Part shown: positions 1,615 through 16,809 of the stretch, one piece after another | How positions within the stretch are numbered: position 1 is the stretch's first letter | How the letters are laid out: every line of letters starts with the position of its first letter | Assembly (NCBI GenBank): GCA_002719475.1 | Contig: PBHQ01000042.1 | Span: 3,813-21,601 of the forward strand | Length of the DNA: 17,789 bases | Reading direction: 5' to 3' | From: Methanobacteriota archaeon | GTDB lineage: Archaea; Thermoplasmatota; Poseidoniia; Poseidoniales; Poseidoniaceae | The notes under the pieces: model-generated | Database searches by the model: none | The model's input: the letters and a program-made list of their open reading frames with translations, nothing else | What the model was told of the DNA's origin: nothing | Position numbers and translations under genes: made by a program

Positions 1615-1617
1615 AAT

Positions 1618-2670
1618 TTATTGCTTCAATTGCTTAATAAAATTAGCCAATGGCATGCATTTAATACCCTTGCCAAATAACACACCACCCTCGGTGCAGT
1701 TATACGTTACACACTCCGCTTCTTTTTGCATCTCGAGAAACGCCTGCCGGTACCACATGTACGCAGGGTCTGTAAAGAACCACGCGTCTACATAAGGGTT
1801 ATAAATACGTAAATACAAGGAGTCGAGATTCTCTTCGCCAACCAGATTTACTGCTTCGTGAAAATATTGAGTATTTCGATATGGTGTACCGTCGTAGTAG
1901 GAAAAATCAACTCCCGTCAGCGCAACATGGCGCTTTTCAAGAACCGCATCGGCAATTAACCAACAGGCTGTGCCCACATTCCCGCCCGCATTAATAGCGG
2001 GGAACCCATTTTTGTTCTGTAATTTAGTCGTTTTGCTATGTGACTCGTCGGGGTCATCAATCATGGGATTCCACCAAAAAATATCCATCCCTGTTTCAAT
2101 CGCTCTTTTAACAACTGATTGAGAAGCTGAAGTCGACATAGCTATCTTTATCTTATTGCCATAAATTTCAAGAAGTTCGATGATTTCTTCATTTGCCCTC
2201 ATCTCGTCGGCAAATGCATCATCTTGGTCCTGACGAGCAAAATAATCATCCTCTTTCAGTTTTGTTTCCGTTAAATCCGGAAGGCCAAACCATCGAACAA
2301 CTCGATCGTGATGAGGGTCAAGAGTTACGACCAGATCTGGGATCAAACCATTGCGAAGGCAATACGACATTGCCGATTCGGTAGCTACTACTGTTCCATT
2401 GTAATCTGATCCTATCAAAATCTGGGCCGGGTTTTTTCGCTTTAAAGATGGTCCAGCAGCTATAACTACAGCACTTGACCCTTCCATGAGATCTGAGTTG
2501 CACAGTTCTGCTATAGACCGCCCACTATCTGCAAATGCAAGATTAGACTCCGCATTTTTAATCCACAATTCACCAAAGCGGTCCCAAGTCATATCTTCCA
2601 TCTTTGGGAGTAATTCCAATGCTAACTCACCATTGGAGCATTTAAGTGAATTTATGTCTGGAGTTTCCAT
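1618..2670 (-). CDS. Short Maf / DUF115 (MptE-like) protein, probable flagellin glycosylation factor
   Basis: The central part matches the DUF115/MptE-like fold shared by Maf motility accessory factors. It has AAGPSL near residues 71-76, a TVVAT...S strand pair, AGGNVGTA near 218-225 and LTGVDFSYYDG near 241-251. Maf proteins are linked to transfer of pseudaminic or legionaminic acid to flagellin Ser/Thr in Campylobacter, Helicobacter and Aeromonas relatives. At about 350 residues it is much shorter than classical Maf proteins of 600 or more and seems to hold only the core. The frame can open at a TTG at 2694, but that has no upstream Shine-Dalgarno. The ATG at 2670 follows an AAGG about 9 bases upstream and is preferred. 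The gene follows a 55-residue ORF and precedes the radical SAM gene by 3 bp. The acceptor protein is not in this window, so flagellin is inferred. Confidence 0.75.
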   Translation of the reverse strand: METPDINSLKCSNGELALELLPKMEDMTWDRFGELWIKNAESNLAFADSGRSIAELCNSDLMEGSSAVVIAAGPSLKRKNPAQILIGSDYNGTVVATESAMSYCLRNGLIPDLVVTLDPHHDRVVRWFGLPDLTETKLKEDDYFARQDQDDAFADEMRANEEIIELLEIYGNKIKIAMSTSASQSVVKRAIETGMDIFWWNPMIDDPDESHSKTTKLQNKNGFPAINAGGNVGTACWLIADAVLEKRHVALTGVDFSYYDGTPYRNTQYFHEAVNLVGEENLDSLYLRIYNPYVDAWFFTDPAYMWYRQAFLEMQKEAECVTYNCTEGGVLFGKGIKCMPLANFIKQLKQ

Positions 2671-2715
2671 TTTTACTTTGGCCTTAAAATCCAATCAATA
2701 AAACCATTTGCAGTT

Positions 2716-2883
2716 TTAGTCTTTTGATGCCTTCCAATTAACACGCTTCTTGGCTACAAACGCAATAGATCCACCTAAATTCTTGAGTGCCTCGCGCTCA
2801 AATCGATCTTCAATGTCATCCTGTGACTCTTCGACCTTAACCTCTTTTTTTGTGGAGAAGTTCCCTTTTAGAATATCATTCAT
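2716..2883 (-). CDS. Small hypothetical protein, 55 aa
   Basis: This is an open frame of 55 codons between the cytidylyltransferase and Maf-like genes, beginning MNDILKGNFS and ending VNWKASKD before TAA. An AAGGA Shine-Dalgarno lies about 9 bases before the ATG, and the gap after the preceding stop is 16 bp, so it fits the operon spacing exactly. The protein is highly charged with roughly balanced acidic and basic residues: an acidic stretch around residues 14-31 is followed by a basic tail, with no membrane segment and no cysteine. I do not recognise a family. The position suggests a partner of the Maf-like protein or of the cytidylyltransferase, but that is inference only. Without it, more than 200 bp of this tight operon would be empty, which supports it being a real gene. 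Confidence 0.65.
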   Translation of the reverse strand: MNDILKGNFSTKKEVKVEESQDDIEDRFEREALKNLGGSIAFVAKKRVNWKASKD

Positions 2884-2899
2884 AATCTTTGGTCCTTAT

Positions 2900-3652
2900 T
2901 TAGTTGCTTGCGGATTCTATCAGATGTTTTTTCATTACCAATTCGACAAACTCAAAATCGAGTGCTGTATCTATGTCGTATGATCTTTGTTCAGGCATGA
3001 CATATATCATCGTATCGGGATAAAAAACCATGGGATTTTGCATAAACATTTCACGTCGCCATACATAAACAGCCGCATTCATATCGTAACAAGGAGGACA
3101 ATCTTGTCGCCGCTCGATTACCGGGCTTGTGGGCTTTGACAATACCACGTAACCGGCATCATTAATTTCAACCATATTGAAATACGGAATCTTCCGTGCG
3201 AGTGAGCCTGTGATTACACTGCTAACTTGATTTTCCTCGAGAAGTGTCACTGCTCCTTTTATGTCTTCCAAACTGCGTAAAGGCGAAGTCGCATCAAGAT
3301 CAACAATTGTTTCAAAATGGCTCCCAAACTTACTTTCTGCTTTATGAACCGCATGCTGTATCGCTGACATCTTAGAAGCAGTATCAGACGCTAAGTGAGC
3401 CGGTCGCTCCAGAACCAAGCCAGCCCCAGCGGAGCGCCCCTCATTTAGGATGTCATGTTCATCGCTACTGACAACCACAAGATCAAAAAGTTTTGTATCC
3501 AGAGCCTGAAAGACTGCTCGCTCAACAAGTGAAGACCCTAGCAAGGGGCGTAAATTTTTACCGGGCAATCCTTTGCTGCCACCCCGCGCGCAAACTGTTG
3601 CAAGTCTTTTAATCTTCAAATAGTTACTTGAATGACCTACCACGCGGTCCAT
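2900..3652 (-). CDS. CMP-nonulosonate cytidylyltransferase (NeuA/LegF/PtmB family)
   Basis: The enzyme activates a nonulosonic acid with CTP to give the CMP-sugar used by the transferase. The nucleotide-binding loop ARGGSKGLPGKN is at residues 22-33. The family motifs DLDATSPLRSLEDI (about 118-131), RRQD...YDMNAAVYVW (about 181-198) and the Mg-binding region YDIDTALDFE (about 225-234) follow. The length of 250 is slightly above the usual 230 because of about 18 residues before the catalytic loop. The ATG at 3652 overlaps the end of the SDR gene by 16 bp with no ideal ribosome site, so a slightly later GTG (codon 4) or TTG (codon 12) is possible. Given the LegC, LegG and PtmE neighbours the substrate is more likely legionaminic-acid-like than Neu5Ac, which sequence alone cannot decide. 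Confidence 0.9.
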   Translation of the reverse strand: MDRVVGHSSNYLKIKRLATVCARGGSKGLPGKNLRPLLGSSLVERAVFQALDTKLFDLVVVSSDEHDILNEGRSAGAGLVLERPAHLASDTASKMSAIQHAVHKAESKFGSHFETIVDLDATSPLRSLEDIKGAVTLLEENQVSSVITGSLARKIPYFNMVEINDAGYVVLSKPTSPVIERRQDCPPCYDMNAAVYVWRREMFMQNPMVFYPDTMIYVMPEQRSYDIDTALDFEFVELVMKKHLIESASN

Positions 3653-4464
3653 CCACCATCTACGATTAAATTCTGACCAGACATATACTTCGACGCATCG
3701 GAAGCTGCGAATATAACAGCCCCGACAATCTCATCCCTATCCGCCATACGCCCAAGGGGTGTCCGCGCCCCATACCTCTTTTGAAAGTTCTCATTTTGAC
3801 CACTCTCAACGCCACCCGGAACTAGAGCATTCACTCTAATTCCCTTACCGGACCAATACGTCGCTAAATATTTAGTTAACCCGATTACTCCTGCTTTTGA
3901 CGCAGAGTAAGCTGGTGGCGTACTAATCTCATGTCCCAAGTATTCAGAGCCTTCATATATTCCAAAGTCTGGACCAACAATGCCATAAATTGAAGCAGTT
4001 TGGAGGATGCTGCCGCCGCCAGCTTGATCCAACATCTTTTTCCCGACAGCCTGTGCAACGAGAAACATGCCGTCCAAATTTACAGACATAATTTCTCTCC
4101 AACACTCCAAAGTGAATTGCTCAAATGGAGAAAAGAAAGCCCTCAAATCTCTCGATTTTGCGGCCGCATTATTGTGAAGAAAATCGATCTTACCAAATTT
4201 CCCGTAGACATTATCCACCATGGCATTAACAGAGGCAGGATCAGAAACATCACAGTAGACAGCCTTAGCCTTTCCGCCATATTCGTAATTAATTTCCTCC
4301 GCCAAGCACTTGGCTGCTGGCAAGTCGAGGTCTACAACTGCTACGTTAGCGCCATGTGCTGCAAGTCCAAGACAAATGCGAGAGCCAATAACTCCCGCAC
4401 CTCCTGTAACCAGCGCAGCTTTTCCGTCGAGTTTAAATAAGTCGGCTAATGGCTTGGAAGACAT
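3637..4464 (-). CDS. Short-chain dehydrogenase/reductase, PtmA-like
   Basis: This is a classical SDR of 275 residues from the preferred ATG. It shows the NAD(P)-binding TGGAGVIG at 20-27, NNAA at 98-101, the catalytic serine near 158 in QTAS, and Y186-SAS-K190. A C-terminal VDGGWTAW fits the family. The frame also opens at a TTG nine codons earlier (4491), but the ATG gives the normal SDR N-terminus (MSSKPLADLFKLDGKAALVTG begins at or near it). Campylobacter flagellar glycosylation loci carry an SDR (ptmA) beside the cytidylyltransferase ptmB, the same adjacency as here. Its exact step is not certain; it may act together with the Gfo/Idh protein upstream. A 53-bp gap separates it from that gene, one of the few gaps in the operon. 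Confidence 0.85.
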   Translation of the reverse strand: MSSKPLADLFKLDGKAALVTGGAGVIGSRICLGLAAHGANVAVVDLDLPAAKCLAEEINYEYGGKAKAVYCDVSDPASVNAMVDNVYGKFGKIDFLHNNAAAKSRDLRAFFSPFEQFTLECWREIMSVNLDGMFLVAQAVGKKMLDQAGGGSILQTASIYGIVGPDFGIYEGSEYLGHEISTPPAYSASKAGVIGLTKYLATYWSGKGIRVNALVPGGVESGQNENFQKRYGARTPLGRMADRDEIVGAVIFAASDASKYMSGQNLIVDGGWTAW

Positions 4465-4517
4465 TGTGTGTCTGCTTGATCCCGTTATCAAATGGCATTA
4501 TGAGACGCAGTTCAGAT

Positions 4518-5438
4518 CTAATCTCGCAACTCAACCCAAACGCCGGTCTGGTTTGCGGTTTCGATTGCATTAATCAGTTGTGAGACCCCTAACCCAGCAT
4601 CCAAATTACAAAGCGCTGTTTCATCACGTTGCAGCACGGCCTTGTGTTGCGCAAGATAAGTGGTGTCAATATCAACATTAATTTGCAATTCCTCTTTTTC
4701 ACGAAAAGAGACGGTTCCAGAAACAAAATTAGCTCGAGCGGTGCCATCTTCGGTAAAAATTACTACGTCACGATGCAGCGAGTCATCCAAGTAGTTCAAT
4801 GCCAATGAAGCTATCGGACAATCATTTGTTTTAAATAATATTGAATACACATCGTCACTATTAATTTGAAGGTGACTAAATTGACCACCTAGTGCCGCAA
4901 CTTTCTGACATTTACCAAGCATCCAAGTCAGGTAGTCGAGTTCATGGCTTAGGTCTCGAAGAACGCCGCCGCCGCGATTCCTATCTGCGGAGTACCCTAA
5001 CCGATAATCCTGCTTTGGGCGCCACTTTGGAAGATATTGGCCAACGTAAGAGTGAGCCGCAATCTTCTTTTTACCATTAACGATAGCCCGTAAAGTTTTT
5101 AAGACAGGGTGGAATCTTAGATTGAATGCCACATACGCACGAGAAAATATGTTCTCGGGAATTGCCCGTGGCTCATGAAATAGCGGTTTCTCAATTAAAA
5201 CAACGCCAGCAAAGCCCGCCTCCGCAAGTATTGAAAAATCGCGGTAATGCTCATGTGTCTGACTTGAAATTACTATATATTCAGGATTCCATATGTCTAA
5301 CGCCTGTTGTATATCTGGAAAGCAGTTTGGATGATCGACCTGACGACGCGACGCGACTGCTATATTTAAACCTAATTGGTCTAAAATACGCGCGTGCCTC
5401 TTTCCAATTGAGCCATATCCAATAACTAGGGCATTCAT
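4518..5438 (-). CDS. Gfo/Idh/MocA family oxidoreductase
   Basis: The N-terminal Rossmann motif GYGSIGKRH at residues 7-15 and the EKP motif at 83-85 identify a Gfo/Idh/MocA NAD(P)-dependent oxidoreductase. The C-terminal half (about 120-306) has the usual open sheet, including LRDLSHELDYLTWMLG, where the conserved HELD histidine is a candidate catalytic residue. Its ATG overlaps the stop of the nucleotidyltransferase gene as ATGA, indicating translational coupling. Gfo/Idh proteins are recurrent in legionaminic acid loci (a ptmF-type gene in Campylobacter), where they work on a sugar precursor. The substrate here is unknown. The family call is firm and the pathway placement is by context. Confidence 0.85.
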   Translation of the reverse strand: MNALVIGYGSIGKRHARILDQLGLNIAVASRRQVDHPNCFPDIQQALDIWNPEYIVISSQTHEHYRDFSILAEAGFAGVVLIEKPLFHEPRAIPENIFSRAYVAFNLRFHPVLKTLRAIVNGKKKIAAHSYVGQYLPKWRPKQDYRLGYSADRNRGGGVLRDLSHELDYLTWMLGKCQKVAALGGQFSHLQINSDDVYSILFKTNDCPIASLALNYLDDSLHRDVVIFTEDGTARANFVSGTVSFREKEELQINVDIDTTYLAQHKAVLQRDETALCNLDAGLGVSQLINAIETANQTGVWVELRD

Positions 5439-6487
5439 TTTTCAAAATGCTCATCAAATTCACGATTTGCCCGCCGATAATCGTCGAGTCGGCCGACGTC
5501 CATCCAATACTCGTGAATTGGAAACACAGATGTATTTAAACCTGCACCAATAATCCGATCAAACAACATGGGCATATCGAAGGGGCCATCCTGTGGAATG
5601 ATCTCAATAAGACTAGGGTCGAGTACATATATCCCTGCATTTACAAAAAATCGATGTGTGGGCTTTTCATCGACTTTACTTATTTGATTATCCTTAACCG
5701 AAACCACGCCAAACGGAACTTGCATCTCATACTCTCGTACACACATTGTTGCTTGAGATTGGTGTTGTTCATGGAATGAAAGTAGTTGATTGAAATTGAC
5801 CTGCGTGAGCAAATCCCCATTCATTACAATCAAGGGCTCCTTCGGACGTTCTTCAATCAAACGCAAGCCACCCGCTGTGCCGAGGCTGGACTTTTCTTCG
5901 AGATATCTTATCTCGATGCCCCATTTTGAACCATTGCCGAAATACGTTTTAATCATTTCTGATTTATAATTCACCGAAATGTAAAACTGCTGAAATTTTT
6001 GCTGGACGAAATTTTTCAATATTGTTTCTAAAAGAGGTTTGTTCCCAACCTCTAATAGCGGCTTAGGCTTTCCATCTGTAAGTGGCCGTAAACGAGTCCC
6101 TTTTCCGCCCGCCATTAAAACAACCCAGTTCTCATTAAGTTTAACCTCTTGGATTAAACTTGCCATCTCAACCAACCCAACGACTCTTCCCTCGGGGTCA
6201 AGAATTGGGAGTTGATGGAGTCTACGGTCACGCATTAAACCCCGCATCTTACTCTCATCTGTATCCATCGGGACAGCAACAGGCGTATCATTCATGACAT
6301 CTGAAACGACACTATTCATAGCAATCCCATCCAAGATTGCACGGCGGATATCTCCATCTGTAAGTGTGCCAATTAACTTGCCATCTTCATTAGTAACTAG
6401 ACAAATTTGTAACGCTGAGCGGTTTAATGCCTCAACAGCCTCACGTATTGAAGTTAATGGGGATATCAGAGTTTGCTTCCAAGTCAC
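5435..6487 (-). CDS. CBS-domain sugar-1-phosphate nucleotidyltransferase (PtmE-like)
   Basis: This is a fusion of a tandem CBS pair (about residues 1-113, with LIGTLTDGDIRRAIL and VVGLVEMASLI) to a nucleotidyltransferase domain (about 120-350). The catalytic signature VLMAGGKGTRLRPLTDGKPK spans 123-142, followed by SLGTAGGL at 201-208, the metal-binding MNGDLL near 222-227 and VNAGIYVLDP. PtmE of Campylobacter jejuni has this architecture and was reported to be a glucosamine-1-phosphate guanylyltransferase feeding a GDP-linked legionaminic acid route. I infer the same activity, hence GDP-sugar intermediates, though a UDP or other specificity is not excluded. The start is a GTG 2 bp after the acyltransferase stop, without a clear Shine-Dalgarno, and the CBS fold starts immediately after it. 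Confidence 0.9.
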   Translation of the reverse strand: MTWKQTLISPLTSIREAVEALNRSALQICLVTNEDGKLIGTLTDGDIRRAILDGIAMNSVVSDVMNDTPVAVPMDTDESKMRGLMRDRRLHQLPILDPEGRVVGLVEMASLIQEVKLNENWVVLMAGGKGTRLRPLTDGKPKPLLEVGNKPLLETILKNFVQQKFQQFYISVNYKSEMIKTYFGNGSKWGIEIRYLEEKSSLGTAGGLRLIEERPKEPLIVMNGDLLTQVNFNQLLSFHEQHQSQATMCVREYEMQVPFGVVSVKDNQISKVDEKPTHRFFVNAGIYVLDPSLIEIIPQDGPFDMPMLFDRIIGAGLNTSVFPIHEYWMDVGRLDDYRRANREFDEHFEK

Positions 6488-6489
6488 AA

Positions 6490-7149
6490 TTAATTATCGG
6501 CTATTTTTTTGTGTTTTAAAATTTGCTCAGCCGGAACCCCTGCCACACACGAGTTTTCAGGGACATCACGAATAACAACGGCGCCGGCGGCAACAACACT
6601 TCCTTGTCCAATCGAGACTGACTGTATAACAGTCGCTCCCGAACCAACAAAACCATTATTGCCGAGGGTAACTCCGCCACAAATCACTGCTCCTGGCGCA
6701 ATATGCGCATGTGCACCTATATGGCAATCGTGATCTATAGATGCACCCGTGTTGATAATGGTATTACTGCCAATCAATGCTCCGGGCTGGACGACGCACC
6801 CCGCTAAAACTTGCACGCCTTCCTCAATCTTAACATCGGATGAAATAACAGAAGACGGATCAACGACTGATGCGAATTGGTAACCTTGTCGTTTGTATTT
6901 CTGAAAGATCCTGCGCCTATAATTGTTTGCTCCAACAAACCCTATCCCTAAAACAAGATCCATGCCCGTAACATCATATTCCTCAAAAATTTGATCCGAG
7001 ACAAATACGGGCACGCCAAGAATATTCTTTTTTTGCAGCGTTTGGTCCGTATCAAAAACCCCAACTACCGATCTGCCAGCCCTTTTTAATGAAGCAATAA
7101 GGACTTTGCCATGACCACCACCGCCAATAATCAATAAAGGGCGAGTCAC
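6490..7149 (-). CDS. NeuD/LegH-type sugar O/N-acyltransferase
   Basis: An N-terminal Rossmann-like PglD_N domain (GGGGHGKV at residues 9-16) is followed by a left-handed beta-helix of hexapeptide repeats (about 95-200, with VIGSNTIINTG, HIGAHAHIAPG and CGGVTLGNNGFVGSGATV). H140 in IDHDCHIG lies where the PglD/NeuD catalytic histidine sits. The end CVAGVPAEQILK is typical. In a legionaminic acid pathway such an enzyme acetylates the 4-amino group made by the LegC aminotransferase; NeuD proteins can instead O-acetylate sialic acids. It starts at a GTG whose bases overlap the synthase stop as GTGA. At 219 residues it has normal family length. Confidence 0.88.
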   Translation of the reverse strand: MTRPLLIIGGGGHGKVLIASLKRAGRSVVGVFDTDQTLQKKNILGVPVFVSDQIFEEYDVTGMDLVLGIGFVGANNYRRRIFQKYKRQGYQFASVVDPSSVISSDVKIEEGVQVLAGCVVQPGALIGSNTIINTGASIDHDCHIGAHAHIAPGAVICGGVTLGNNGFVGSGATVIQSVSIGQGSVVAAGAVVIRDVPENSCVAGVPAEQILKHKKIADN

Positions 7150-8216
7150 TGGTTAATCAACTCTCCTCGCCGATAATTGCGAACAGCTGTCATGTTCATA
7201 AACTCCCAGTATCGCATCGGTGATATACCTCCCCCAGGCCTTTTGATCCCTATATTATGGGGTGTAAAATTTTCACCCTCACTAATATCACAGTTGGCGG
7301 TCAAGCTCTTACGGACGGTTAGCCGGTTTTCTAGCTCTCCACGGGAAGGTTTTTTTACCCCATTACCAAGAGAGGACTCTATATGCCGAATCCCAGTGAT
7401 CATTAATTTAAGATCTTCAGGCTGCACCGAGGCTATATGGTCAGGACCTGGAAGTCCTCGATCTAATGTGAAATGTTTCTCCACAATACATGCGCCGAGG
7501 GCTGCGGCGCCGATAGATACGTTTATGCCTTGAGAATGATCCGACAAACCAACCTGCAATCCAAATTCATCGCGCAGTGTTTGCATCGAACATAAGTTAA
7601 TATTTTTAAAGGAGGCAGGGTACTCTGAGGTGCAATGCAACAAACTCACATATTTGCGCAATGCCTTTTCGCCATCGATACTTTTATAAGCATGCTTCAA
7701 GTCTATATCGGAAGGCGTATCCCCGCCACAAAATCCAAAGGCTAGTACAGATAGAGCCTGCCGCACCTCATCAATTGAGGACATACCAGTCGATAATATT
7801 ATTGGAATACGTGCGTAAGCCGCCTCTAATAACAAGGGTCCATTTGTGATTTCGCCAGAAGAGAGCTTGATCTTTCCGACCTCTAGTTCAGAAACGAGAA
7901 ATTTAAGACTTACAGTATCAAAAGGTGTCGATAGGAACTCTATTTCCAATTTGTTGCACTCTTCAACTAAGGCAAGATGGTCGCTACTTGACAGCTCTAA
8001 TCGCCGGAGCATCTCAAAATGAGTTTCATTAATATCCGTTGTTTGAGCTTGATATTTTGCTTTAGGCGCATCACTGGTAGCTAATTCCGCAGCTTTGAAC
8101 GTTTGAAACTTTATTGCATCAGCACCCGCATTTTTAGCAACGCGAACCATCTCAACGGCTATCGCCAGATCACCATTGTGGTTCACTCCAGCCTCAGCAA
8201 TCACAAACACGCCCAT
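7146..8216 (-). CDS. NeuB/LegI-type nonulosonic acid synthase
   Basis: The enzyme condenses phosphoenolpyruvate with a 6-carbon amino sugar to form a 9-carbon nonulosonic acid. It has the TIM barrel with AEAGVNHNGD at 7-16, KFQTF at 36-40, STPFD, KLSSGEI, LLHCTSEYPA at 182-191, GLSDHS at 203-208 and EKHFTLDRGLPGPDH at 226-240. A C-terminal SAF (antifreeze-like) domain runs from about 288 and contains GIKRPGGGISP at 323-333. The frame extends 12 codons further upstream, but the ATG at 8216 overlaps the deacetylase stop as TAATG and begins directly at the barrel, giving the usual 356 residues. Neighbours LegC and LegG favour 2,4-diacylamino-2,4,6-trideoxymannose as substrate over ManNAc, by inference. 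Confidence 0.93.
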   Translation of the reverse strand: MGVFVIAEAGVNHNGDLAIAVEMVRVAKNAGADAIKFQTFKAAELATSDAPKAKYQAQTTDINETHFEMLRRLELSSSDHLALVEECNKLEIEFLSTPFDTVSLKFLVSELEVGKIKLSSGEITNGPLLLEAAYARIPIILSTGMSSIDEVRQALSVLAFGFCGGDTPSDIDLKHAYKSIDGEKALRKYVSLLHCTSEYPASFKNINLCSMQTLRDEFGLQVGLSDHSQGINVSIGAAALGACIVEKHFTLDRGLPGPDHIASVQPEDLKLMITGIRHIESSLGNGVKKPSRGELENRLTVRKSLTANCDISEGENFTPHNIGIKRPGGGISPMRYWEFMNMTAVRNYRRGELINQ

Positions 8217-8884
8217 TAATAAATTTCTCTTAAAAGCATGAAAGATTCGCACGCAAACCGGCCCGCTTCCGCGCCACGAAGATAAGCCAAACTTTTTATT
8301 GCTCGATCACTCCTTGGAAATGGAAAATCACTTATCTCACCATCATAAAGCTCCATGATAGAGACTTTTTGATTTAAAAAGGGGTTTATATCCACATAGC
8401 AATTGGGCCGAAACTCGCGATCAATTGGTGTAATAGAAAAATTAGTTTCCGATGGAATTTCCATGCACATAACTTTTCGTACCGAATTAAATCGAAAGGC
8501 TTTTGTGCAAGCACTTGCCGCTTTGAAGCTGATTTGATGGTCGGTGTGAGCATCAGCCGGGAATGGTAGATATAAAATATTTGGAGAAATCGAGCGGAAG
8601 ATCACAGCCATAGCATCAACGATAGATTTAATCGAATATGTGTCAAGTTGTGAACTCGGGAACCCCAACCGATGAACCCCTTCAAATTTATAAGCCTCAG
8701 CCACTGAAGAAATTTCCTTATTTCTGCGCTGAATTTGATCCAGGCTGTAACCTCCATCAGAAGTCATTTCGGATACAATCATCCAGTGCACTGCATCGCC
8801 TTCCTGGCAATGCCGCAACAATGTGCCTCCACAACCAAGCGTTTCGTCGTCCGGATGCGGAGCTACAACGAGTACCGTCCTCAA
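8216..8884 (-). CDS. PIG-L (LmbE) family zinc deacetylase
   Basis: The 222-residue protein has AHPDDE at 9-14 and HTDH at 113-116, the two zinc-binding motifs of PIG-L/LmbE/MshB N-deacetylases, with D13 as the likely catalytic base. These enzymes remove an N-acetyl group from sugars. The start is a TTG (MRTVLVVAPHPDDE) whose bases overlap a TGA at 8881-8883. That TGA is the natural end of the formyltransferase frame if the internal stop of that gene is ignored. The gene lies between the formyltransferase and the synthase. The pairing suggests removal of an acetyl group followed by formylation of the free amine on the nonulosonic acid or its precursor. The family call is firm and the substrate is inferred. 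Confidence 0.9.
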   Translation of the reverse strand: MRTVLVVAPHPDDETLGCGGTLLRHCQEGDAVHWMIVSEMTSDGGYSLDQIQRRNKEISSVAEAYKFEGVHRLGFPSSQLDTYSIKSIVDAMAVIFRSISPNILYLPFPADAHTDHQISFKAASACTKAFRFNSVRKVMCMEIPSETNFSITPIDREFRPNCYVDINPFLNQKVSIMELYDGEISDFPFPRSDRAIKSLAYLRGAEAGRFACESFMLLREIY

Positions 8885-9015
8885 ATATAATCTCCAACTC
8901 GCGGTATTTTGGGAATTTCGTGTTCAAGCAACATAATAGAGTCTATCCCACACTTCACATGAACTATTTTGCCTTCAACATTAAGCACTTTTCCTGGCTC
9001 GACGTGATGCTCATC
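8881..9015 (-). pseudogene. Detached C-terminal segment of the formyltransferase, in frame after a TAA
   Basis: After the TAA at 9016-9018 the same reading frame stays open for 44 codons and ends at TGA 8881-8883. The encoded piece reads like the C-terminal OB-like part of formyltransferases, with VEPGKVLNVEGKIVHVKCG and then IPRVGDYI at the end. The TGA overlaps the TTG start of the deacetylase as TTGA, the same coupling seen between the 2-epimerase and formyltransferase genes. All of this indicates that the ancestral gene ran 8881-9765 (294 residues counting one codon at the TAA). Explanations are a recent nonsense substitution, a sequencing or consensus error, or stop-codon readthrough. 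No start codon with a ribosome site is evident for separate translation. Confidence 0.75.
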
Positions 9016-9765
9016 TTAGCCATAACACACCGTGCTCCAAACTTTTATTTCTTGGCCCTGATGCATAAAATGAGCGCCGATATACGGACGCGAGAGACCC
9101 CGGACTAAGTTATGGATAGTTTGCGACGACATTCGCCAATCTATAGCACCATCAGCCTGTGTGCGACGACGCCAGTTTGTTGCTTTATCATGAAACTGGG
9201 GGATGGTTGCAAGCCGCCCCTCAATCAATTCCTTAATAATATTATCAATCTGTGCCTTTGAGGATACTGTGACTTTTCCCATTAAGCTAGCGGCGTTATC
9301 GTCTCCCGTCACGGGGATTGAAACACGGGAGACAATATCCCCGGTATCAACTCCGCTATCCATCATGAAAAAGCAGGATGCTGTTTCAGGCAACCCTAAA
9401 ACAAGAGTCCAAATAAGGGGATGACGACCACGTCCTAGAGGAAGTGGTGCCGGGTGATAACCAATTACGCCGTATTTTGAAGAAGAAAGGACCGACTTAT
9501 CCAACAAATGAGACCACCCCAGGCAAAAAATTATATCCGGCATAGTCTGATGAAACCAGGCCGCTATATCGCATTGAGAATGCGCATCTGCCATTAAAAA
9601 TGGGATCTTATTTTTTTCTGCTATGGGTGCTAAAGATTTAAAGTCTGAATTAAAGCTCGCCTTTCCTCTAGTTACGATTGAGACGACCTCCACGTCCTTG
9701 GAGTTAAGAAGATGCTCAAGCATTGTGAAACTAAATTGTACACAACCAATAAAACCAACCTTCAA
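9016..9765 (-). CDS. Sugar N-formyltransferase (methionyl-tRNA formyltransferase-like), C-terminally interrupted
   Basis: The N-terminal formyltransferase domain covers about residues 1-190. It has HPAPLPLGRGRHPLIW at 104-119 and a DSGVDTGDIV segment whose D140 matches the catalytic Asp. The usual catalytic triad is N-x-H...D (N102, H104, D140 in E. coli ArnA); here the Asn position holds G102, while H104 and D140 are kept at the same numbering. Sugar formyltransferases move a formyl group from N10-formyl-tetrahydrofolate to a sugar amine. A C-terminal subdomain begins around DGAIDWRMSSQTIHNLVRGL. The frame is cut by TAA at 9016-9018 after 249 residues, but the missing part continues in frame (8881-9015). 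The TTG start overlaps the 2-epimerase TGA as TTGA. The product may be truncated but perhaps still has its catalytic domain. Confidence 0.85.
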   Translation of the reverse strand: MKVGFIGCVQFSFTMLEHLLNSKDVEVVSIVTRGKASFNSDFKSLAPIAEKNKIPFLMADAHSQCDIAAWFHQTMPDIIFCLGWSHLLDKSVLSSSKYGVIGYHPAPLPLGRGRHPLIWTLVLGLPETASCFFMMDSGVDTGDIVSRVSIPVTGDDNAASLMGKVTVSSKAQIDNIIKELIEGRLATIPQFHDKATNWRRRTQADGAIDWRMSSQTIHNLVRGLSRPYIGAHFMHQGQEIKVWSTVCYG

Positions 9766-10946
9766 ACTAACATCTCCATAGGAAGGTCGTAGAAGGGCTT
9801 CATTAAAATATTATCTAAATCAACCGTTTTAAGAACATTCTTAATTTTCCGTGAGGCACCCGCAACACCAAACGGGTAAATAGCTTTATCCGTTTTCTTA
9901 CGATGTTGGGGTTTAATTGCCTCGGAAATTGCCGCAATAATTGATTGTTCGGACTCCGCACAATCGATTACTGAATCAGACCTAATTCTACCTCGCTGTC
10001 TATCACCGATGTTTACAGTTGGGACTTTTAAAGCGGGCGCCTCTAGAATTCCACTTGATGAGTTTCCAACAACGGCAGATGCATATTTCATAGCACTAAA
10101 ATATCTTAATTGACCTAACGAGACATACATACACAATCGTTCGGGTGAAGATGCCACATAACTCTCAATTATTTTTGTAAGGTTTTTATTGCCTGGATCG
10201 GAATTAACCCCTGTTATTATAACGTTGAATTCAGGAAACTTCTCAAAGGCATTGAGCATATGAACGATGTTGTCTCCACATTTGGCGCTATTAAGTGTAA
10301 CTGGATGGTAAGTGACGAGAAAAAAGGGATTAGTCAGATCGAAACTGAGATAATTTGAGAGTGAGTCCCTATCTATGAAATCTAGCACGGCCAAAGCATC
10401 CAGACACATAGCTCCAACATTAAAAACTCGTTCAGGATTCTCTCCTAATTGGATTACACGTCTGCGATAAGGCTCTGCTGCAGTAAAATGCAAATGGCTC
10501 ATCTTTGTTGTCGAATGTCGGATAGACTCATCTATTAAACCCTCAGTTGCTTCCCCCCCGTGAATATGGGCGATCGGAATTTTCAACAACATCGCAGCTT
10601 CTGCCGCACCCAGAATTTCATAACGGTCACCAAGCAACACCAAAATATCGGGCTTCAGACTATCAAGGACCTCCGCCAATCTGGAAATTCCTTTTGCCAT
10701 TGATCGCGCAACTCCCAGCGGACTATCGTCAAACAAATCAATTGGTACTCGTGCGTCGACTTGAAATCCATCTCTCTCTATTAAGACGACCGTGTTTCCA
10801 TATGACGCTTCTAGATGCATAGCCGTAACAACCACTTGAAGATCAAGTAAATCGTCATTTTCAATCTCTCGCATAAGCGTGGAAAGCAGTCCATACTCAG
10901 CCCGTGTTCCAGTTATTATACAAATTTTACGGGCCTCGATTGTCAA
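9762..10946 (-). CDS. Hydrolysing nucleotide-sugar 2-epimerase (LegG/NeuC family)
   Basis: This is a GT-B-fold epimerase of 394 residues with TGTRAEYGLL at 12-21, LLGDRYEIL near 104-112, and HIHGGEATEGLIDESIRH at 127-144. A later VGNSSSGILEAPALKVPTVN then GDRQRGR follows. These match NeuC/LegG enzymes, which hydrolyse a UDP- or GDP-bound 2-acetamido sugar with inversion at C2 to release the free manno-configured sugar for the synthase. The LegC aminotransferase directly upstream argues for a diacetamido-trideoxy substrate (LegG) rather than UDP-GlcNAc (NeuC). The start is a TTG one base after the LegC stop, with an AGGCG upstream; TTG starts recur in this operon. Its stop overlaps the next start. 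Confidence 0.9.
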   Translation of the reverse strand: MTIEARKICIITGTRAEYGLLSTLMREIENDDLLDLQVVVTAMHLEASYGNTVVLIERDGFQVDARVPIDLFDDSPLGVARSMAKGISRLAEVLDSLKPDILVLLGDRYEILGAAEAAMLLKIPIAHIHGGEATEGLIDESIRHSTTKMSHLHFTAAEPYRRRVIQLGENPERVFNVGAMCLDALAVLDFIDRDSLSNYLSFDLTNPFFLVTYHPVTLNSAKCGDNIVHMLNAFEKFPEFNVIITGVNSDPGNKNLTKIIESYVASSPERLCMYVSLGQLRYFSAMKYASAVVGNSSSGILEAPALKVPTVNIGDRQRGRIRSDSVIDCAESEQSIIAAISEAIKPQHRKKTDKAIYPFGVAGASRKIKNVLKTVDLDNILMKPFYDLPMEMLV

Positions 10947-10947
10947 T

Positions 10948-12102
10948 TTATGCGTCGCCTAATTGGGCACTTGAGGGTATATTTATTATACGTTTATAAA
11001 GGCTTCGCGACACAGAGAGATCCATTTGTGGACAATCGTTGTAAGGTGCCAGGGTCGATAGCGGTTTCCATGCAGGGCGGCTCATAAGCCCAGAGTTATT
11101 TAAAAGGTGCAATACCTCATCTCGGAATTTTTCGAATGCGTCCTCAAGAATTATCAGGTTGAGCCAGTAATTACTGCGACAGCTCTTTGGCTCGGTAAAA
11201 AACTTCACGCCTGCGAGACCCTGAAAGGCGGTCTCATAGCGCTTTGCAAGATTGCGCTTATTCTCAATAAAAATATTCAGGTTTTCTAGCTGAGCACATC
11301 CGATTGCAGCATTTATATTCGCCAAGCGATAATTGTACCCAATTTGGTCATGGTCAAATTCCCACGGGCTTGGCTTTTTTGCTGTAGTGGTTAGATGTTT
11401 TGCACGAGCTGCAAGTTCTGCGCTTTCTGTTAAAATTGCACCCCCACTTCCTGTCGTAATTATCTTATTACCGTTAAAACTTAGAGCTGAGAGAAGACCA
11501 TATTTCCCGGTATGGCTGTCTTTATAATATGAACCAAGCGATTCAGCCGCATCCTCGATAAGGGGAAGTTCAAAGTCCTGACAGACTGTAAGTATCTCAT
11601 CGAGACTTGCTGGATGGCCAAATGCATGCATACAGACTACTGCTGCAATTCGCCTTCCGGTTTTTTTATTTACAAGATCACCGTCCCGAAAATTCCCGAT
11701 ATCTGCCAGATGTTCGGCGAGTTTTTTTGGGTCGAGTCCCAAGGTAGACTCTGAACTATCGGCGAAATGTGGGATTGCATTACAGTAAGATACCGCATTC
11801 GCTACAGCTACAAAAGACAATGCAGGAACTATTACCTCATCACCAGCGCGTACACCTGCGAGTAATAGGCATACATGCAAAGCCGAAGTACCATTTATTG
11901 TAGGCACAGCATGACTCACATTAGTTACTTCACTTAACATGTGGCCAAACTTTTCCACATAAGAACCAACACTGGACACCCATCCAGTATCGAGACAATC
12001 TTTTATATAGAGCCATTCATTTCCAATTAAATTCGGTTCATGTAAAGAAGCATCTTCGTTAACGACCAAACGCATTGCTTCGAGCACGTCATTCGCAATC
12101 AT
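10948..12102 (-). CDS. LegC-type PLP aminotransferase (DegT/DnrJ/EryC1 family)
   Basis: The protein has EPNLIGNEW at 22-30 and GWVSSVG at 40-46, hallmark early motifs of the LegC branch of DegT aminotransferases. NGTSALH at 70-76, IEDAAESLGSYY at 182-193 and GNKIITTGSGG at 211-221 follow; K213 is the probable PLP Schiff-base lysine. The enzyme should aminate C4 of a 4-keto-6-deoxy nucleotide sugar using glutamate. The ATG at 12102 lies 2 bp after the epimerase stop and is preferred over a start nine codons earlier that would overlap that gene; the resulting 384 residues are normal for the family. It needs a 4-keto substrate made by a 4,6-dehydratase, which is not clearly encoded in this window. 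Confidence 0.9.
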   Translation of the reverse strand: MIANDVLEAMRLVVNEDASLHEPNLIGNEWLYIKDCLDTGWVSSVGSYVEKFGHMLSEVTNVSHAVPTINGTSALHVCLLLAGVRAGDEVIVPALSFVAVANAVSYCNAIPHFADSSESTLGLDPKKLAEHLADIGNFRDGDLVNKKTGRRIAAVVCMHAFGHPASLDEILTVCQDFELPLIEDAAESLGSYYKDSHTGKYGLLSALSFNGNKIITTGSGGAILTESAELAARAKHLTTTAKKPSPWEFDHDQIGYNYRLANINAAIGCAQLENLNIFIENKRNLAKRYETAFQGLAGVKFFTEPKSCRSNYWLNLIILEDAFEKFRDEVLHLLNNSGLMSRPAWKPLSTLAPYNDCPQMDLSVSRSLYKRIINIPSSAQLGDA

Positions 12103-12104
12103 AG

Positions 12105-13247
12105 TTATTTCGCATCTCGAATTTCCCAATTTCCGTAGAAATTTAAATGCTCGCCAAAATTTTGAAAAAGCCCTTGGCGCATCGCTCCGATTAACTCTCT
12201 AATTCCGTCGGATATTGTATAAGACGGTTCAAAAAAAAGGCGGCTTCTTACCTTGGAAAAATCCACCCTATAATTGCGAGCATCTGAACCACTGTCTTGA
12301 TGCGCATATTTACCGTCCGGCAGTTGTTCAATAATTGCGTCAACTAACATTTGTTTTGTAAAATTATTCACGTCACCGCCTGCGTTGAATACTTCGAAAT
12401 TTACTCTTTCCCGAGGAGCCTCAATAACACGACGAATTAATTCGCTGAAATCACGCAAATGACAATACGGCCGCCATGTGTGCGCATCATAAACACGCAA
12501 GTCATGGCCTAACATCATTGCACGAGTGAATTCACTAACAGTAAGATCAAAGCGCATTCGCAAGCTAAGCCCAAAAGCAGTAGCAAATCGAAGTATCGTG
12601 GGGCAGTAATCAACACTACCCTGCGAGTTTAATATTTTTTTCTCTACTTGAACTTTAGATTTCGCGTACAGTGATAATGGATTCAGTGCAAAGTCCTCAT
12701 CTGCAAGGTGATTTCCCTCTATCAGACCATAGTTGGAGCAGGTGGAGACAAAGACAACCTTGTTCAATGAACGCTCATTCAGCAGGTGCAGCACGAGATC
12801 ATATCCAGTATCATTAATTTCCTCTGCGGCGGCTGGGTATTTTTTTGTAATTGGATCGCCAACTAGGCCAGCGAGCAGTATTACATCATCGACATCTCTG
12901 AGGGCCTCCTCAACGTCCGACTTTACTGTTATATCACCTCGGAGAAATTCATAAGAATTGCGATGAAGAAAGGGGACCACGGTTTGGCCATGATTATAAA
13001 TTAAATTATCAAAACTGCGCACAATGTATCCGGCGTCAAGCAAATGCTCGGTGAGAACAGAGCCTACATACCCAGCTCCACCTATTATTAGAACCCTCCG
13101 GACTTTTGCGCCCCTCAATGAAAAAGCTTTTTCAGCAACATGAATATTTTCCTCGAATACTTCTCCTTGATAATGCGACGGAAGACTGGCGTTATTGACG
13201 TATGCGATATTTCTGCAATACGACTCTAGAATTTCATTAGTAGCCAT
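12105..13247 (-). CDS. NAD-dependent sugar epimerase/dehydratase (extended SDR)
   Basis: Using the ATG at 13247 (preceded by GGGG), the protein has 380 residues. The cofactor loop GGAGYVGS is at 56-63, an AGLVGDP segment is near 126-132, VSTCSNYG is at 167-174 and the catalytic Y194-AKS-K198 follows. 4,6-dehydratases carry Asp-Glu after the active-site Thr (TDExYG). Here those positions are Cys and Ser, so epimerase, reductase or another NAD-linked chemistry is more likely than dehydration. About 50 residues precede the Rossmann fold, which is unusual for extended SDRs and matches no domain I recognise. It is the first biosynthetic gene after the ops element. It occupies the place where a LegB dehydratase would be expected, but its motifs do not support that role. 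Confidence 0.8.
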   Translation of the reverse strand: MATNEILESYCRNIAYVNNASLPSHYQGEVFEENIHVAEKAFSLRGAKVRRVLIIGGAGYVGSVLTEHLLDAGYIVRSFDNLIYNHGQTVVPFLHRNSYEFLRGDITVKSDVEEALRDVDDVILLAGLVGDPITKKYPAAAEEINDTGYDLVLHLLNERSLNKVVFVSTCSNYGLIEGNHLADEDFALNPLSLYAKSKVQVEKKILNSQGSVDYCPTILRFATAFGLSLRMRFDLTVSEFTRAMMLGHDLRVYDAHTWRPYCHLRDFSELIRRVIEAPRERVNFEVFNAGGDVNNFTKQMLVDAIIEQLPDGKYAHQDSGSDARNYRVDFSKVRSRLFFEPSYTISDGIRELIGAMRQGLFQNFGEHLNFYGNWEIRDAK

Positions 13248-13292
13248 TTTCCCCACACACAATACTTCGGCTATCCCGCGCTAATATTTTCC

Positions 13293-13304
13293 CACGCTAC
13301 CGCA
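13293..13304 (-). promoter_or_regulatory. ops-like element (RfaH recruitment/pause site)
   Basis: The minus strand reads TGCGGTAGCGTG, identical to the E. coli ops core GGCGGTAGCGTG at 11 of 12 positions (11 contiguous bases). It lies in the untranslated gap after an RfaH-like gene and about 45 bp before the first biosynthetic gene. In enterobacteria RNA polymerase pauses at ops, and RfaH binds the exposed non-template strand and suppresses termination through long surface-polysaccharide operons. An exact 11-mer in this short gap is very unlikely by chance. Whether this alphaproteobacterial paralog reads it is inference. Confidence 0.75.
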
Positions 13305-13326
13305 CTCAGGGTGAAACTACCCTGAG
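13305..13326 (-). promoter_or_regulatory. Hairpin directly upstream of ops, candidate pause hairpin
   Basis: There are perfect 8-bp arms, CTCAGGGT and ACCCTGAG, with a 6-base loop (AGTTTC on the transcribed strand). The hairpin ends at the base before the ops element. That leaves 10 bases between its foot and the expected ops pause U (13294), about the spacing known for hairpin-stabilised pauses such as the his pause. No T-run follows, so it is not an intrinsic terminator. A second weaker inverted pair, TTTCGC/GCGAAA (13350-13374), overlaps the stop codon of the rfaH-like gene. Confidence 0.6.
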
Positions 13327-13358: not shown

Positions 13359-13862
13359 TTATAAGGCAGCGAAAACTGTGTTCTCATTAACCTGCGCCCG
13401 CACTTGGCGCCCAAGCATATTTAAAAGGACAGTAACCCGATTACTGCCGTCCGTACTCTCAAATAATGCATCGAGATCCCCCAGCGCACCCTGCAACACG
13501 CGAACATGTTCTCCGCGTCTAAAGGCCTCACCTTCGTAGACCTTAACCAGTCCTGCCTCATTCTGTCGCGATCGAATTTCTTCAATCACTACTTCTGGAA
13601 CGGCAGCAGGTTTCTCGCCAAAGCATATGACATCAAATATACCGATTGTCGAACGAATGGCGCGCCATAGTGAGCATTCCAAATCTATCTCAACGAATAA
13701 ATATCCGGGGAATAGTGGTCGCGGAACCCATTCAACTCTCCGAGCATGAGCACGACGCTTCATGTGTTTTGGCAGCAAAACCTTGAAGTCTTGCCGAGTT
13801 AAATGAAATGCCGCCTGGTCCTCAGCATTAATACGCGATTTTGCAACGCACCAATACTTCAT
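13359..13862 (-). CDS. RfaH-like transcription antiterminator (NusG paralog)
   Basis: The 167-residue protein has an NGN domain (about 1-100) with PRPLFPGYLFVEID at 47-60, TIGIFDVICFGEKPAAVP at 72-89, and a C-terminal KOW domain. The last 45 residues (GALGDLDALFESTDGSNR then VLLNMLGRQVRAQVNENT) follow the RfaH C-terminus closely (GAFEGFQAIFTEPDG... LLLNLINKEI...), so it is an RfaH-type rather than a housekeeping NusG. Such proteins ride with RNA polymerase and block Rho- and pause-dependent termination in long operons. The ATG overlaps the regulator's stop as ATGA. The downstream gap carries an ops element, its predicted target. Compared with E. coli from memory, Glu48 is Arg here, while the KOW Arg138 equivalent (R142) is kept. 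Confidence 0.9.
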   Translation of the reverse strand: MKYWCVAKSRINAEDQAAFHLTRQDFKVLLPKHMKRRAHARRVEWVPRPLFPGYLFVEIDLECSLWRAIRSTIGIFDVICFGEKPAAVPEVVIEEIRSRQNEAGLVKVYEGEAFRRGEHVRVLQGALGDLDALFESTDGSNRVTVLLNMLGRQVRAQVNENTVFAAL

Positions 13863-14482
13863 TTCGTGACCCCTTTGTCGCTAGTGACCCCCAGTAAGTC
13901 AGGAGCTAAAACCCGTTCAGGGGGCAAAATCTCGACCAACTTGTCAAATGACGCCTGTGGATTTGAAACTTCACACATTATAACTGCATCTATCTCGTTC
14001 AGATCAAATTCGGCTGCAGAGATCAGTGGAAGGCCTGCAAACTCAGGCGTATTCGGAAATTCAGTGATAACACAAACTAAGTCAATTTCGAAATTACGCG
14101 CTGAAAGAGTTAAGATCTCGGCTAGATCACTAGCCCCAAATAGAGCGACTCGATGCCAACCTCTAACCTGACATACCCTCAATAATTCGTTACCCGAAAT
14201 CCGTGCTTGACGAAATAAATTCAATGACTGAGAGAAAAACTCCGCAGTTAGCCGCGATTTTTCCGAAAACCCTTGAGGCGTCAAGTAGTAAGCGTAGCGA
14301 TTGGCCGGCGCGTGGGAAATCTTGATCAAGCCCTTCTTAACGCAGCGCTTTATATAAGTATTGGCTAACCCAAGAGCTATGCCGAGACGCCCCGCCATCG
14401 AACGCTGAGAAGCCTGGGCGTCATCATTAACTGCATTTAACAGACCGAGAGTAATTTTGGCTTCGTTATCCATATCGGGCAT
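13859..14482 (-). CDS. EPS-associated MarR-like winged-helix regulator with C-terminal Rossmann-like domain
   Basis: The N-terminal ~90 residues form a winged helix (ASQRSMAGRLGIALGLANTY, then KKGLIKI and YAYYLTPQGFSEKSRL) that resembles the EPS-associated MarR family seen at polysaccharide loci. Residues about 105-195 look like a nucleotide- or CoA-binding Rossmann fold (RVALFGASDLAEILTLSARN, VCVIT, IDAVIMCEV), an added sensor-like domain. It is the first gene of the operon and is coupled to the rfaH-like gene by ATGA. ATG at 14482 is used; another ATG three codons in is possible, and neither has a clear Shine-Dalgarno. It is the natural candidate to bind the palindromes upstream (14599-14638), by inference. 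Confidence 0.8.
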   Translation of the reverse strand: MPDMDNEAKITLGLLNAVNDDAQASQRSMAGRLGIALGLANTYIKRCVKKGLIKISHAPANRYAYYLTPQGFSEKSRLTAEFFSQSLNLFRQARISGNELLRVCQVRGWHRVALFGASDLAEILTLSARNFEIDLVCVITEFPNTPEFAGLPLISAAEFDLNEIDAVIMCEVSNPQASFDKLVEILPPERVLAPDLLGVTSDKGVTK

Positions 14483-14598: not shown

Positions 14599-14638
14599 CG
14601 TTCAATAAATGAACGATAATGCGTTCAAGCTATGAACG
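14599..14638. promoter_or_regulatory. Tandem operator-like palindromes CGTTCA-N5-TGAACG
   Basis: Two perfect 17-bp palindromes, 14599-14615 (spacer ATAAA) and 14622-14638 (spacer AGCTA), are repeated with a 23-bp period, about two helical turns. The arms are conserved and the spacers differ, the pattern of a dimeric regulator binding twice. A further half-site CGTTCA is at 14558-14563. They lie in the 280-bp space between the tRNA and the first gene of the operon. The rest of that space (14483-14764) shows only a small TGGTTT/AAACCA inverted repeat (14675-14689) and no ORF worth calling. Confidence 0.65.
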
Positions 14639-14764
14639 TCAAGTATCTTTCGCGAATGTGCGCTTGACAGACATTGGTTTGGAAAACCACTCTGACAACT
14701 CAGATACCAAACTATATTTATACTTTTAGAGACTTACACGGGCGAAAATCTGCGATTTAAGGAA

Positions 14765-14839
14765 TGGTGCCGCGGAGTGGAATTGAACCACCGACCCCGC
14801 CCTTACCAAGGGCGTGCTCTACCCCTGAGCTACCGCGGC
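14765..14839 (-). tRNA. tRNA-Thr (anticodon GGU)
   Basis: The minus strand folds as a full cloverleaf. The acceptor is GCCGCGG paired with CCGCGGC, the D arm is GCTC/GAGC, the anticodon stem is CGCCC/GGGCG with loop TTGGTAA (anticodon GGT, decoding ACC/ACU), and the T arm is GGTGG-TTCAATT-CCACT. A73 and an encoded CCA (14765-14767) end the gene. Its 3' end faces the nonulosonic acid operon. Only a weak short stem (AAATC-GCA-GATTT) follows, so termination is unclear and read-through toward the operon promoter is possible. Confidence 0.96.
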
Positions 14840-16410: not shown

Positions 16411-16500
16411 CATTTTTGAAAAACTAAAAAACAAATTCTAGAGAACTGCGCAAAAAACCTCTATGACTCGGCCCATTTAAAGTCGTATGGGACAAAAGCC

Positions 16501-16809
16501 GTGTTTAGGTATGAAACAAGAAGCCTTTTCTGCTCAAATACCCTCAACCGCCCCAGTTTGATTTTATTTTCAACCGGCCGGATTAATGCGATTATTCAAT
16601 GGGCTAAAAACTCTAAGTTTCACGGCGGTTGTCATGCTCCTTCTCAAATGCATGTGAACCAAAAATTTAACCCAGAACATCAGAACTTGAAACTTATATT
16701 AAAAACCTCGAGCGAAATTATTCTCCACCTAGCGACAGAAACCCTGAACGAGCTAATAACATACAGGCCTGAGAATTGCGAGGAGGCAGACCATGTCCAA
16801 ACGACTTAA
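16501..16809 (+). CDS. Doubtful ORF between murA and hisD, possibly a decayed DUF2948 gene
   Basis: A frame opens at 16420 without a start and first offers a GTG at 16501 (GGGA 8 bases before), giving 102 residues that overlap the hisD start by 17 bp. The composition is unlike neighbouring genes: many Asn, His and Cys residues and no clean domain. In many alphaproteobacteria a DUF2948 gene sits at this place between murA and hisD. The tail (LKLILKTSSEIILHL then TYRPENCEE) faintly recalls the end of that family, and a third frame holds FDFIFNR, which recalls its middle. I therefore suspect a frameshifted remnant or a very divergent copy. The stretch 16411-16500 holds nothing I can call. Confidence 0.25.
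   Translation: MFRYETRSLFCSNTLNRPSLILFSTGRINAIIQWAKNSKFHGGCHAPSQMHVNQKFNPEHQNLKLILKTSSEIILHLATETLNELITYRPENCEEADHVQTT

What the first reader, a model, noticed from the sequence alone, without database searches (positions are those of the whole stretch)
13293..13326. Hairpin plus near-perfect ops element between an rfaH-like gene and its own downstream operon
Seen: TGCGGTAGCGTG on the minus strand (11 of 12 bases of the E. coli ops) is preceded immediately by an 8-bp perfect hairpin. The hairpin foot is 10 bases from the expected pause U, the spacing of hairpin-stabilised pauses. The upstream gene encodes an RfaH-type NusG paralog, and the downstream unit is a 14-gene, ~13-kb operon. Known: ops recruits RfaH in gammaproteobacteria. 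Inference: this is a compact antitermination cassette in an alphaproteobacterium where the regulator gene is transcribed before the pause site, so RfaH made from the short transcript licenses the rest of the operon. The combined hairpin-ops pause appears unusual to me.
Basis: partly seen in the sequence, partly recalled or inferred. Interest (0 to 1): 0.85.

Follow-up and report, generated by a model that had tools for sequence, protein, structure and literature searches.

The report
RfaH landing site in alphaproteobacterial operon
A short RNA hairpin followed at once by an "ops" pause sequence sits just after an RfaH-like gene, is conserved in many alphaproteobacteria and recurs before other sugar-coat operons, so it is most likely the place where this protein boards RNA polymerase to get long operons read to the end.

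Summary
CTCAGGGT-AGTTTC-ACCCTGAG directly precedes TGCGGTAGCGTG (minus strand, 13326-13293), 55 nt after the rfaH-like stop. In relatives GCGGTAGC lies within 130 nt of that stop in 48 of 79 evaluable loci (expected 0.003 each). The hairpin covaries. A model built without the window finds it (E 8e-9). Of 289 alphaproteobacterial genomes, 40 of 46 with the element have an RfaH-like gene, against 24 of 243 without.

Hairpin plus ops is a known layout (E. coli JUMPstart, RF01707), but Rfam's model scores this form below its cut-off (15.6 against 35 bits). New here: a palindrome GTTCA-N5-TGAAC lies at the marR promoter (67 of 79 loci) and also just upstream of element copies that do not follow an rfaH gene (15 of 28, against 1 of 48 that do). 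This suggests a MarR/RfaH regulon acting on initiation and elongation. The RfaH lacks E48 and has a predicted beta-barrel C-terminal domain, yet keeps an ops. Against: two of the four base-reading side chains of E. coli RfaH are absent. Recruitment itself is inferred.

The parts
13305..13326 (-). 8-bp RNA hairpin CTCAGGGT-AGTTTC-ACCCTGAG
   Evidence: sequence; fold z -3.9; covariation in relatives
13293..13304 (-). ops-type pause and recruitment sequence TGCGGTAGCGTG; expected pause base at 13294
   Evidence: exact GCGGTAGCGTG; in relatives bases 11-12, not used for selection, are T in 44 and G in 40 of 49
13359..13862 (-). RfaH-like NusG paralog (167 aa)
   Evidence: TIGR01955 119.7 bits, PF02357; model closest to RfaH on ops-paused complex
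13859..14482 (-). MarR-type regulator gene (207 aa), overlaps rfaH start by 4 bases
   Evidence: TIGR04176 59.7 bits, below cut-off 88; found directly before rfaH in 71 of 79 loci examined
14623..14637 (-). palindrome GTTCA-N5-TGAAC, putative MarR operator
   Evidence: overlaps promoter-like TTGACG-18-TATCGT, 14642-14613
14600..14614 (-). second GTTCA-N5-TGAAC palindrome
14613..14642 (-). promoter-like TTGACG-18-TATCGT upstream of the marR-like gene
   Evidence: such consensus matches are not above chance in that scan (3 found, 2.8 expected); TTGAC next to the palindrome recurs in relatives
73..13262 (-). 13 co-directional genes of a nonulosonate-type surface-glycan operon, the presumed target
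   Evidence: families (NeuB, NeuC, LegC-family aminotransferase and others)

Best explanation
The element is the recruitment site of an alphaproteobacterial RfaH-type antiterminator and works like E. coli JUMPstart. Transcription starts at a promoter controlled by the MarR-type protein, makes marR and rfaH, and reaches the hairpin-ops 55 nt after rfaH. The nascent hairpin and the consensus pause sequence hold RNA polymerase at U11; the non-template GCGGTAGC loop binds RfaH, which stays on the polymerase through the 13-kb operon. The same pair of signals, MarR operator in the promoter and hairpin-ops in the leader, marks other operons, so MarR and RfaH form one regulon. Shown here: conservation, covariation, co-occurrence with RfaH, pairing of operator and element. 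Inferred: pausing, RfaH binding, MarR binding, the order of events and the exact role of the hairpin.
For: Ops core within 130 nt after rfaH in 48 of 79 loci, expected 0.003 each. Own hairpin arms pair better than shuffled or swapped arms; 47 two-sided changes, covariation score reached by 0 of 500 shuffles and lost on sliding. Model R1 (8 seeds, window not among them) finds the window at E 8e-9. 40 of 46 element genomes have RfaH-like protein against 24 of 243. Palindrome at marR promoters in 67 of 79 loci, near 15 of 28 non-adjacent elements and 1 of 48 adjacent ones. Hairpin-free composite pattern in 15 of 385 genomes, backwards control in 1. Genes after non-adjacent sites are often glycan genes. 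Q24, T72, G74 and R23 kept in 48, 48, 49 and 45 of 49 proteins with the element.
Against: 31 of 79 loci lack the core near rfaH, and only 3 of 32 loci rescanned show a model hit below E 0.001 elsewhere. Of the four E. coli side chains that read the ops bases (K10, H20, R23, R73), K10 and R73 are absent in the 49 proteins with the element and H20 is N in 20. RfaH homologs of the beta-CTD type have been reported active without ops in E. coli (PMC13015549). 6 of 46 element genomes show no RfaH-like protein at E 1e-30. 13 of 28 non-adjacent elements lack the exact palindrome. Kinship not corrected.
Confidence: 0.78

Rival explanations
1. The hairpin is itself a recognition signal: this RfaH, like LoaP of Bacillus, binds the RNA hairpin in addition to the ops DNA.
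For: The 3' arm is conserved in sequence beyond pairing needs (CAC invariant or nearly so, TCACCC in most). LoaP needs a leader RNA hairpin and binds it (PMC12691694 passages). Missing base-reading residues could be offset by a second contact.
Against: The arm sequence does vary with compensation, and an AT-rich locus has a quite different stem (L240, by eye). E. coli JUMPstart has a hairpin although its factor reads DNA.
Confidence: 0.25
2. The hairpin-ops is a general pause or attenuation site that acts without RfaH, for instance through NusG or ribosome loading; its place after rfaH is historical.
For: Some element genomes show no RfaH-like protein (6 of 46), and ops-like pauses act on diverse polymerases (PMC7593976, section 10).
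Against: Strong co-occurrence with RfaH-like genes, which also lie directly upstream in 22 of 50 cases.
Confidence: 0.12
3. The inverted repeat is a DNA operator for a dimeric regulator, not an RNA structure.
For: The arms are partly conserved in sequence.
Against: The loop or spacer varies widely, 3 to 23 nt in the helix placement used, while the foot stays at the ops; covariation. A separate, fixed-spacing palindrome already serves as a likely operator.
Confidence: 0.04
4. The hairpin is a terminator or 3'-end stabiliser of the marR-rfaH mRNA.
For: It lies just after the rfaH stop codon.
Against: No T run follows and no terminator was called there. The same hairpin-ops stands in leaders with a promoter-like operator instead of rfaH before it.
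Confidence: 0.04

Closest known systems
JUMPstart / ops leader element (Rfam RF01707) of gammaproteobacteria, with E. coli RfaH
   Same: Stem-loop directly before GCGGTAGCGTG, transcribed ahead of polysaccharide operons; model R2 aligns the E. coli element in register at 13.3 bits
   Different: No conserved 5' box in the alignment of relatives, different and longer stem, below Rfam's cut-off, placed after the regulator's own gene, operator-coupled copies elsewhere
TaA and UpxY, NusG paralogs encoded within their target operons
   Same: Regulator gene stands in its own target operon (PMC7593976, section 11)
   Different: Here an ops-hairpin follows the gene, and further targets appear to exist
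Putative monomorphic RfaH homologs (PMC13015549)
   Same: Beta-barrel CTD in two AlphaFold2 models, no E48 in 80 of 80, next to a long envelope operon
   Different: That work proposes ops-independent action in cis; here ops-hairpins are conserved next to rfaH and elsewhere
LoaP with its leader RNA hairpin
   Same: NusG paralog and a small leader hairpin (PMC12691694 passages)
   Different: LoaP shows no ops-type site there; here the hairpin abuts an ops

Membership tests
JUMPstart RNA (RF01707) | ops core GCGGTAGCGTG at the 3' end | tested here: met
   exact
JUMPstart RNA (RF01707) | stem-loop directly 5' of ops | tested here: met
JUMPstart RNA (RF01707) | score at or above the gathering cut-off of 35 bits | tested here: not met
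   15.6 bits in the window; no cut-off hit in 8 relative loci or 6 relative genomes
JUMPstart RNA (RF01707) | conserved 5' box CAGYGC | tested here: not met
   window has GAGCGT; no conserved columns there in relatives
RfaH (TIGR01955) | score above 144.5 bits | tested here: not met
   119.7 bits; it is the best-scoring family in that scan
RfaH | side chains that read ops bases (K10, H20, R23, R73) | tested here: inconclusive
   window has R10, H20, R23, I73; in 49 proteins with the element R23 in 45, H20 in 28, K10 and R73 in 0
RfaH | autoinhibition: E48 and alpha-helical CTD | tested here: not met
   E48 absent in 80 of 80; CTD predicted as beta-barrel in two models, a prediction only
RfaH | recruitment to an ops-paused polymerase | not testable with these tools
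   needs in vitro transcription
MarR_EPS (TIGR04176) | score above 88 bits | tested here: not met
   59.7 bits

The most novel reading that the evidence does not exclude
Alphaproteobacteria have a two-key regulon for surface glycans. A MarR-type protein gates initiation through GTTCA-N5-TGAAC inside the promoter. The RfaH made from the same transcript is not autoinhibited; it is loaded by a composite code, an RNA hairpin in the nascent transcript and an ops hairpin in the non-template DNA, read together. The regulator's own transcript carries one copy after rfaH, and other operons carry the full operator-hairpin-ops set. This would explain how an open RfaH stays operon-specific.
Probability: 0.3. 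Interest if true: 0.88.

Novelty: new variant of a known kind. Interest (0 to 1): 0.72.

Why it matters
PMC7593976 (section 11) states that E. [quoted passage not shown] This finding gives a concrete, widely conserved candidate recruitment element for a separate RfaH branch, together with a likely promoter operator, so the question becomes directly testable. It also bears on PMC13015549, which proposes that RfaH homologs without autoinhibition act without ops and in cis: here a family with that predicted form keeps an ops-hairpin and appears to have further targets. The covariance model lets one map the candidate regulon from sequence alone.

Tried and rejected
Chance match: rejected by conservation. 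Rfam as the whole answer: JUMPstart scores too low. Plain MAFFT alignments of the elements left the 5' arms unaligned, so 8 elements of equal loop length served as seed and the rest were brought in by model search. Terminator: none called at the site. The window's own genome could not be searched. Solved structures for the MarR-like protein: nothing at E 0.1. Plasmids encoding a relative of the MarR-like protein: 16 records, all under 60% identity, not followed. Comparison of RfaH residues between loci with and without the element (R23 45 of 49 against 18 of 31) is not corrected for kinship; the element label is clustered on the protein tree (9 changes, shuffled mean 24.8). The Fisher tests are likewise uncorrected. 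The genome sample contains G001, whose locus L001 was among the 51 rows behind model R2; other overlaps cannot be excluded.

Literature: nine searches of open-licence papers. In the listings shown (partial) I saw no paper on an ops element in alphaproteobacteria or on an operator of MarR_EPS proteins; subscription papers are mostly not covered. Seen: PMC7593976 passages and sections 10 and 11; PMC5995543 passages and section 6; PMC13015549 outline, passages and sections 7-9; passages only of PMC2864571, PMC11150451 and PMC12691694. All other papers as listings only.

Full report
What is in the window. On the minus strand the order is a marR-like gene (14482-13859), an rfaH-like gene (13862-13359, overlapping by four bases), 32 nt, the hairpin CTCAGGGT-AGTTTC-ACCCTGAG (13326-13305), TGCGGTAGCGTG (13304-13293), then 13 co-directional genes to the edge of the window. 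Their families point to a sialic/legionaminic-type sugar on a surface glycan: NeuB, NeuC, a LegC-family aminotransferase, a CMP-sugar-synthetase-like protein and others.

Is it more than chance? Exact GCGGTAGCGTG occurs once. The better test is relatives. Of 567 confirmed relatives in public genomes the tool kept the best 80 loci; 79 have a readable rfaH stop. In 48 of 79 GCGGTAGC lies within 130 nt after that stop, 43 to 101 nt away, against an expected 0.003 per locus from the same loci; 31 do not have it. Record titles of loci with it include Rhodospirillales, Magnetovibrio, Paramagnetospirillum, Bradyrhizobium, Nitrobacter and Afipia. The 48 were picked by exact GCGGTAGC, so ops bases 2-9 are invariant by construction. 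Bases 11 and 12, the pause dinucleotide, were not used and are T in 44 and G in 40 of 49, window counted; both together in 39.

The hairpin. A helix was sought with its foot 1-4 nt before the ops core, so that foot range is set by the search. Mean helix score was 20.7, against at most 15.3 with the 5' block shuffled and at most 18.9 with 5' blocks swapped among loci (200 rounds each). A covariance model from 8 relatives, the window not among them, found the window at 34.8 bits, E 8e-9 in 912 kb, and all 48 selected loci at E 0.5 or better, 8 of these being the seeds. On 51 aligned matches (49 distinct) 8 of 12 pairs change on both sides (4 of 500 shuffles reach that), 47 cells do (0 of 500), and the covariation score of 0.264 is reached by 0 of 500 and falls to 0.073 or less on sliding. 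That alignment was fitted to the structure, so counts lean towards it. The loop varies widely while the foot stays at the ops, which suits RNA rather than a dimer's operator.

What it resembles. The E. coli JUMPstart between galF and rfbB has a stem ending one base before the 12-base ops; model R2, made here, finds it in register at 13.3 bits, E 0.009. Hairpin plus ops is therefore a known layout (PMC2864571 passage). Rfam's model gives the window 15.6 bits, cut-off 35, with no cut-off hit in 8 relative loci or 6 relative genomes. It works like JUMPstart but is not a member by Rfam's test.

Link to RfaH. In 289 alphaproteobacterial genomes R2 hit 46 at E 0.001; 40 of these have an RfaH-like protein below E 1e-30, against 24 of 243 without the element; 6 element genomes have none. 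Of 50 elements at that threshold 22 lie within 210 nt after an RfaH-like gene on the same strand and 28 do not. Of 20 proteins taken from downstream of such non-adjacent sites, 15 had a Pfam match at E 1e-6, many of glycan type (DegT aminotransferase, Polysacc_synt_2, RmlD-like, nucleotidyl- and cytidylyltransferase, polysaccharide deacetylase), besides ABC exporters, methyltransferases and asparagine synthase; 5 had none.

A second signal. A palindrome GTTCA-N(3-7)-TGAAC lies 450-1200 nt upstream of rfaH, at the marR promoter, in 67 of 79 loci (L063 left out for lack of sequence), background 0.12 per stretch. The window has two copies with N5, 14600-14614 and 14623-14637, the latter inside a promoter-like TTGACG-18-TATCGT; such promoter matches alone are not above chance. 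Within 250 nt upstream of the 28 non-adjacent elements the exact palindrome occurs in 15, and two more have one mismatch; one of the 28 (L203) has only about 60 nt of upstream sequence. For the 48 elements after rfaH it occurs in 1 (one search lists 31 sites, three of them weaker, which add one more). A pattern that does not mention the hairpin, palindrome then 86-110 nt then GCGGTAGC, hits 15 of 385 genomes and its backwards control 1. Of the 12 of 15 places that became loci, 10 score with the hairpin model; of the other two, L240 has a stem of a different sequence by eye and L241 looks like chance. The natural reading is that the MarR-type protein acts at the promoter and RfaH in the leader of the same operons. 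MarR binding is inferred.

Limits. No experiment was possible; many genomes are drafts and unnamed; kinship is not corrected in the Fisher tests. Of the 32 loci without the core near rfaH (L003 included), R2 finds an element elsewhere at E below 0.001 in 3. Whether the hairpin aids pausing or is bound by a protein is undecided.

Noticed in passing
L081-L160 (viral contigs), e.g. L085, L100, L112, L114, L115, L156, just after the RfaH-like gene: 16 of 80 viral-contig RfaH-like genes have exact GCGGTAGC within 160 nt after the stop (expected 0.005 each; L085, L087 and L088 are near-copies), several with a stem before it. Phage-borne NusG paralogs may carry their own ops in the same place.
   Followed up: partly
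L153, L155, L160 about 470-750 nt after the RfaH-like gene: Three viral contigs carry the hairpin with a variant core GCGTTAGC, model E 1e-5 to 3e-5.
   Followed up: no
window 13859-14482, residues about 90-207 of the MarR-like protein: The part after the winged helix has no Pfam match at E 0.001; by eye it looks Rossmann-like and could sense a ligand. Untested.
   Followed up: no
window 14768-14839 (minus) and 15124-17788 (plus): A tRNA gene separates the cassette from genes that by eye look like murA and hisD, so the glycan cluster may be an island beside a tRNA.
   Followed up: no
window 13359-13862, loop LLNMLGRQV near the C-terminus: By eye the loop that binds Rho in NusG reads M-L-G-R here, nearer to NusG's I-F-G-R than E. 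coli RfaH's L-I-N; possible residual Rho contact. Untested.
   Followed up: no
L033 at 4297-4338 and 4535-4578: Two hairpin-ops matches in tandem after one rfaH gene in Bradyrhizobium retamae.
   Followed up: no
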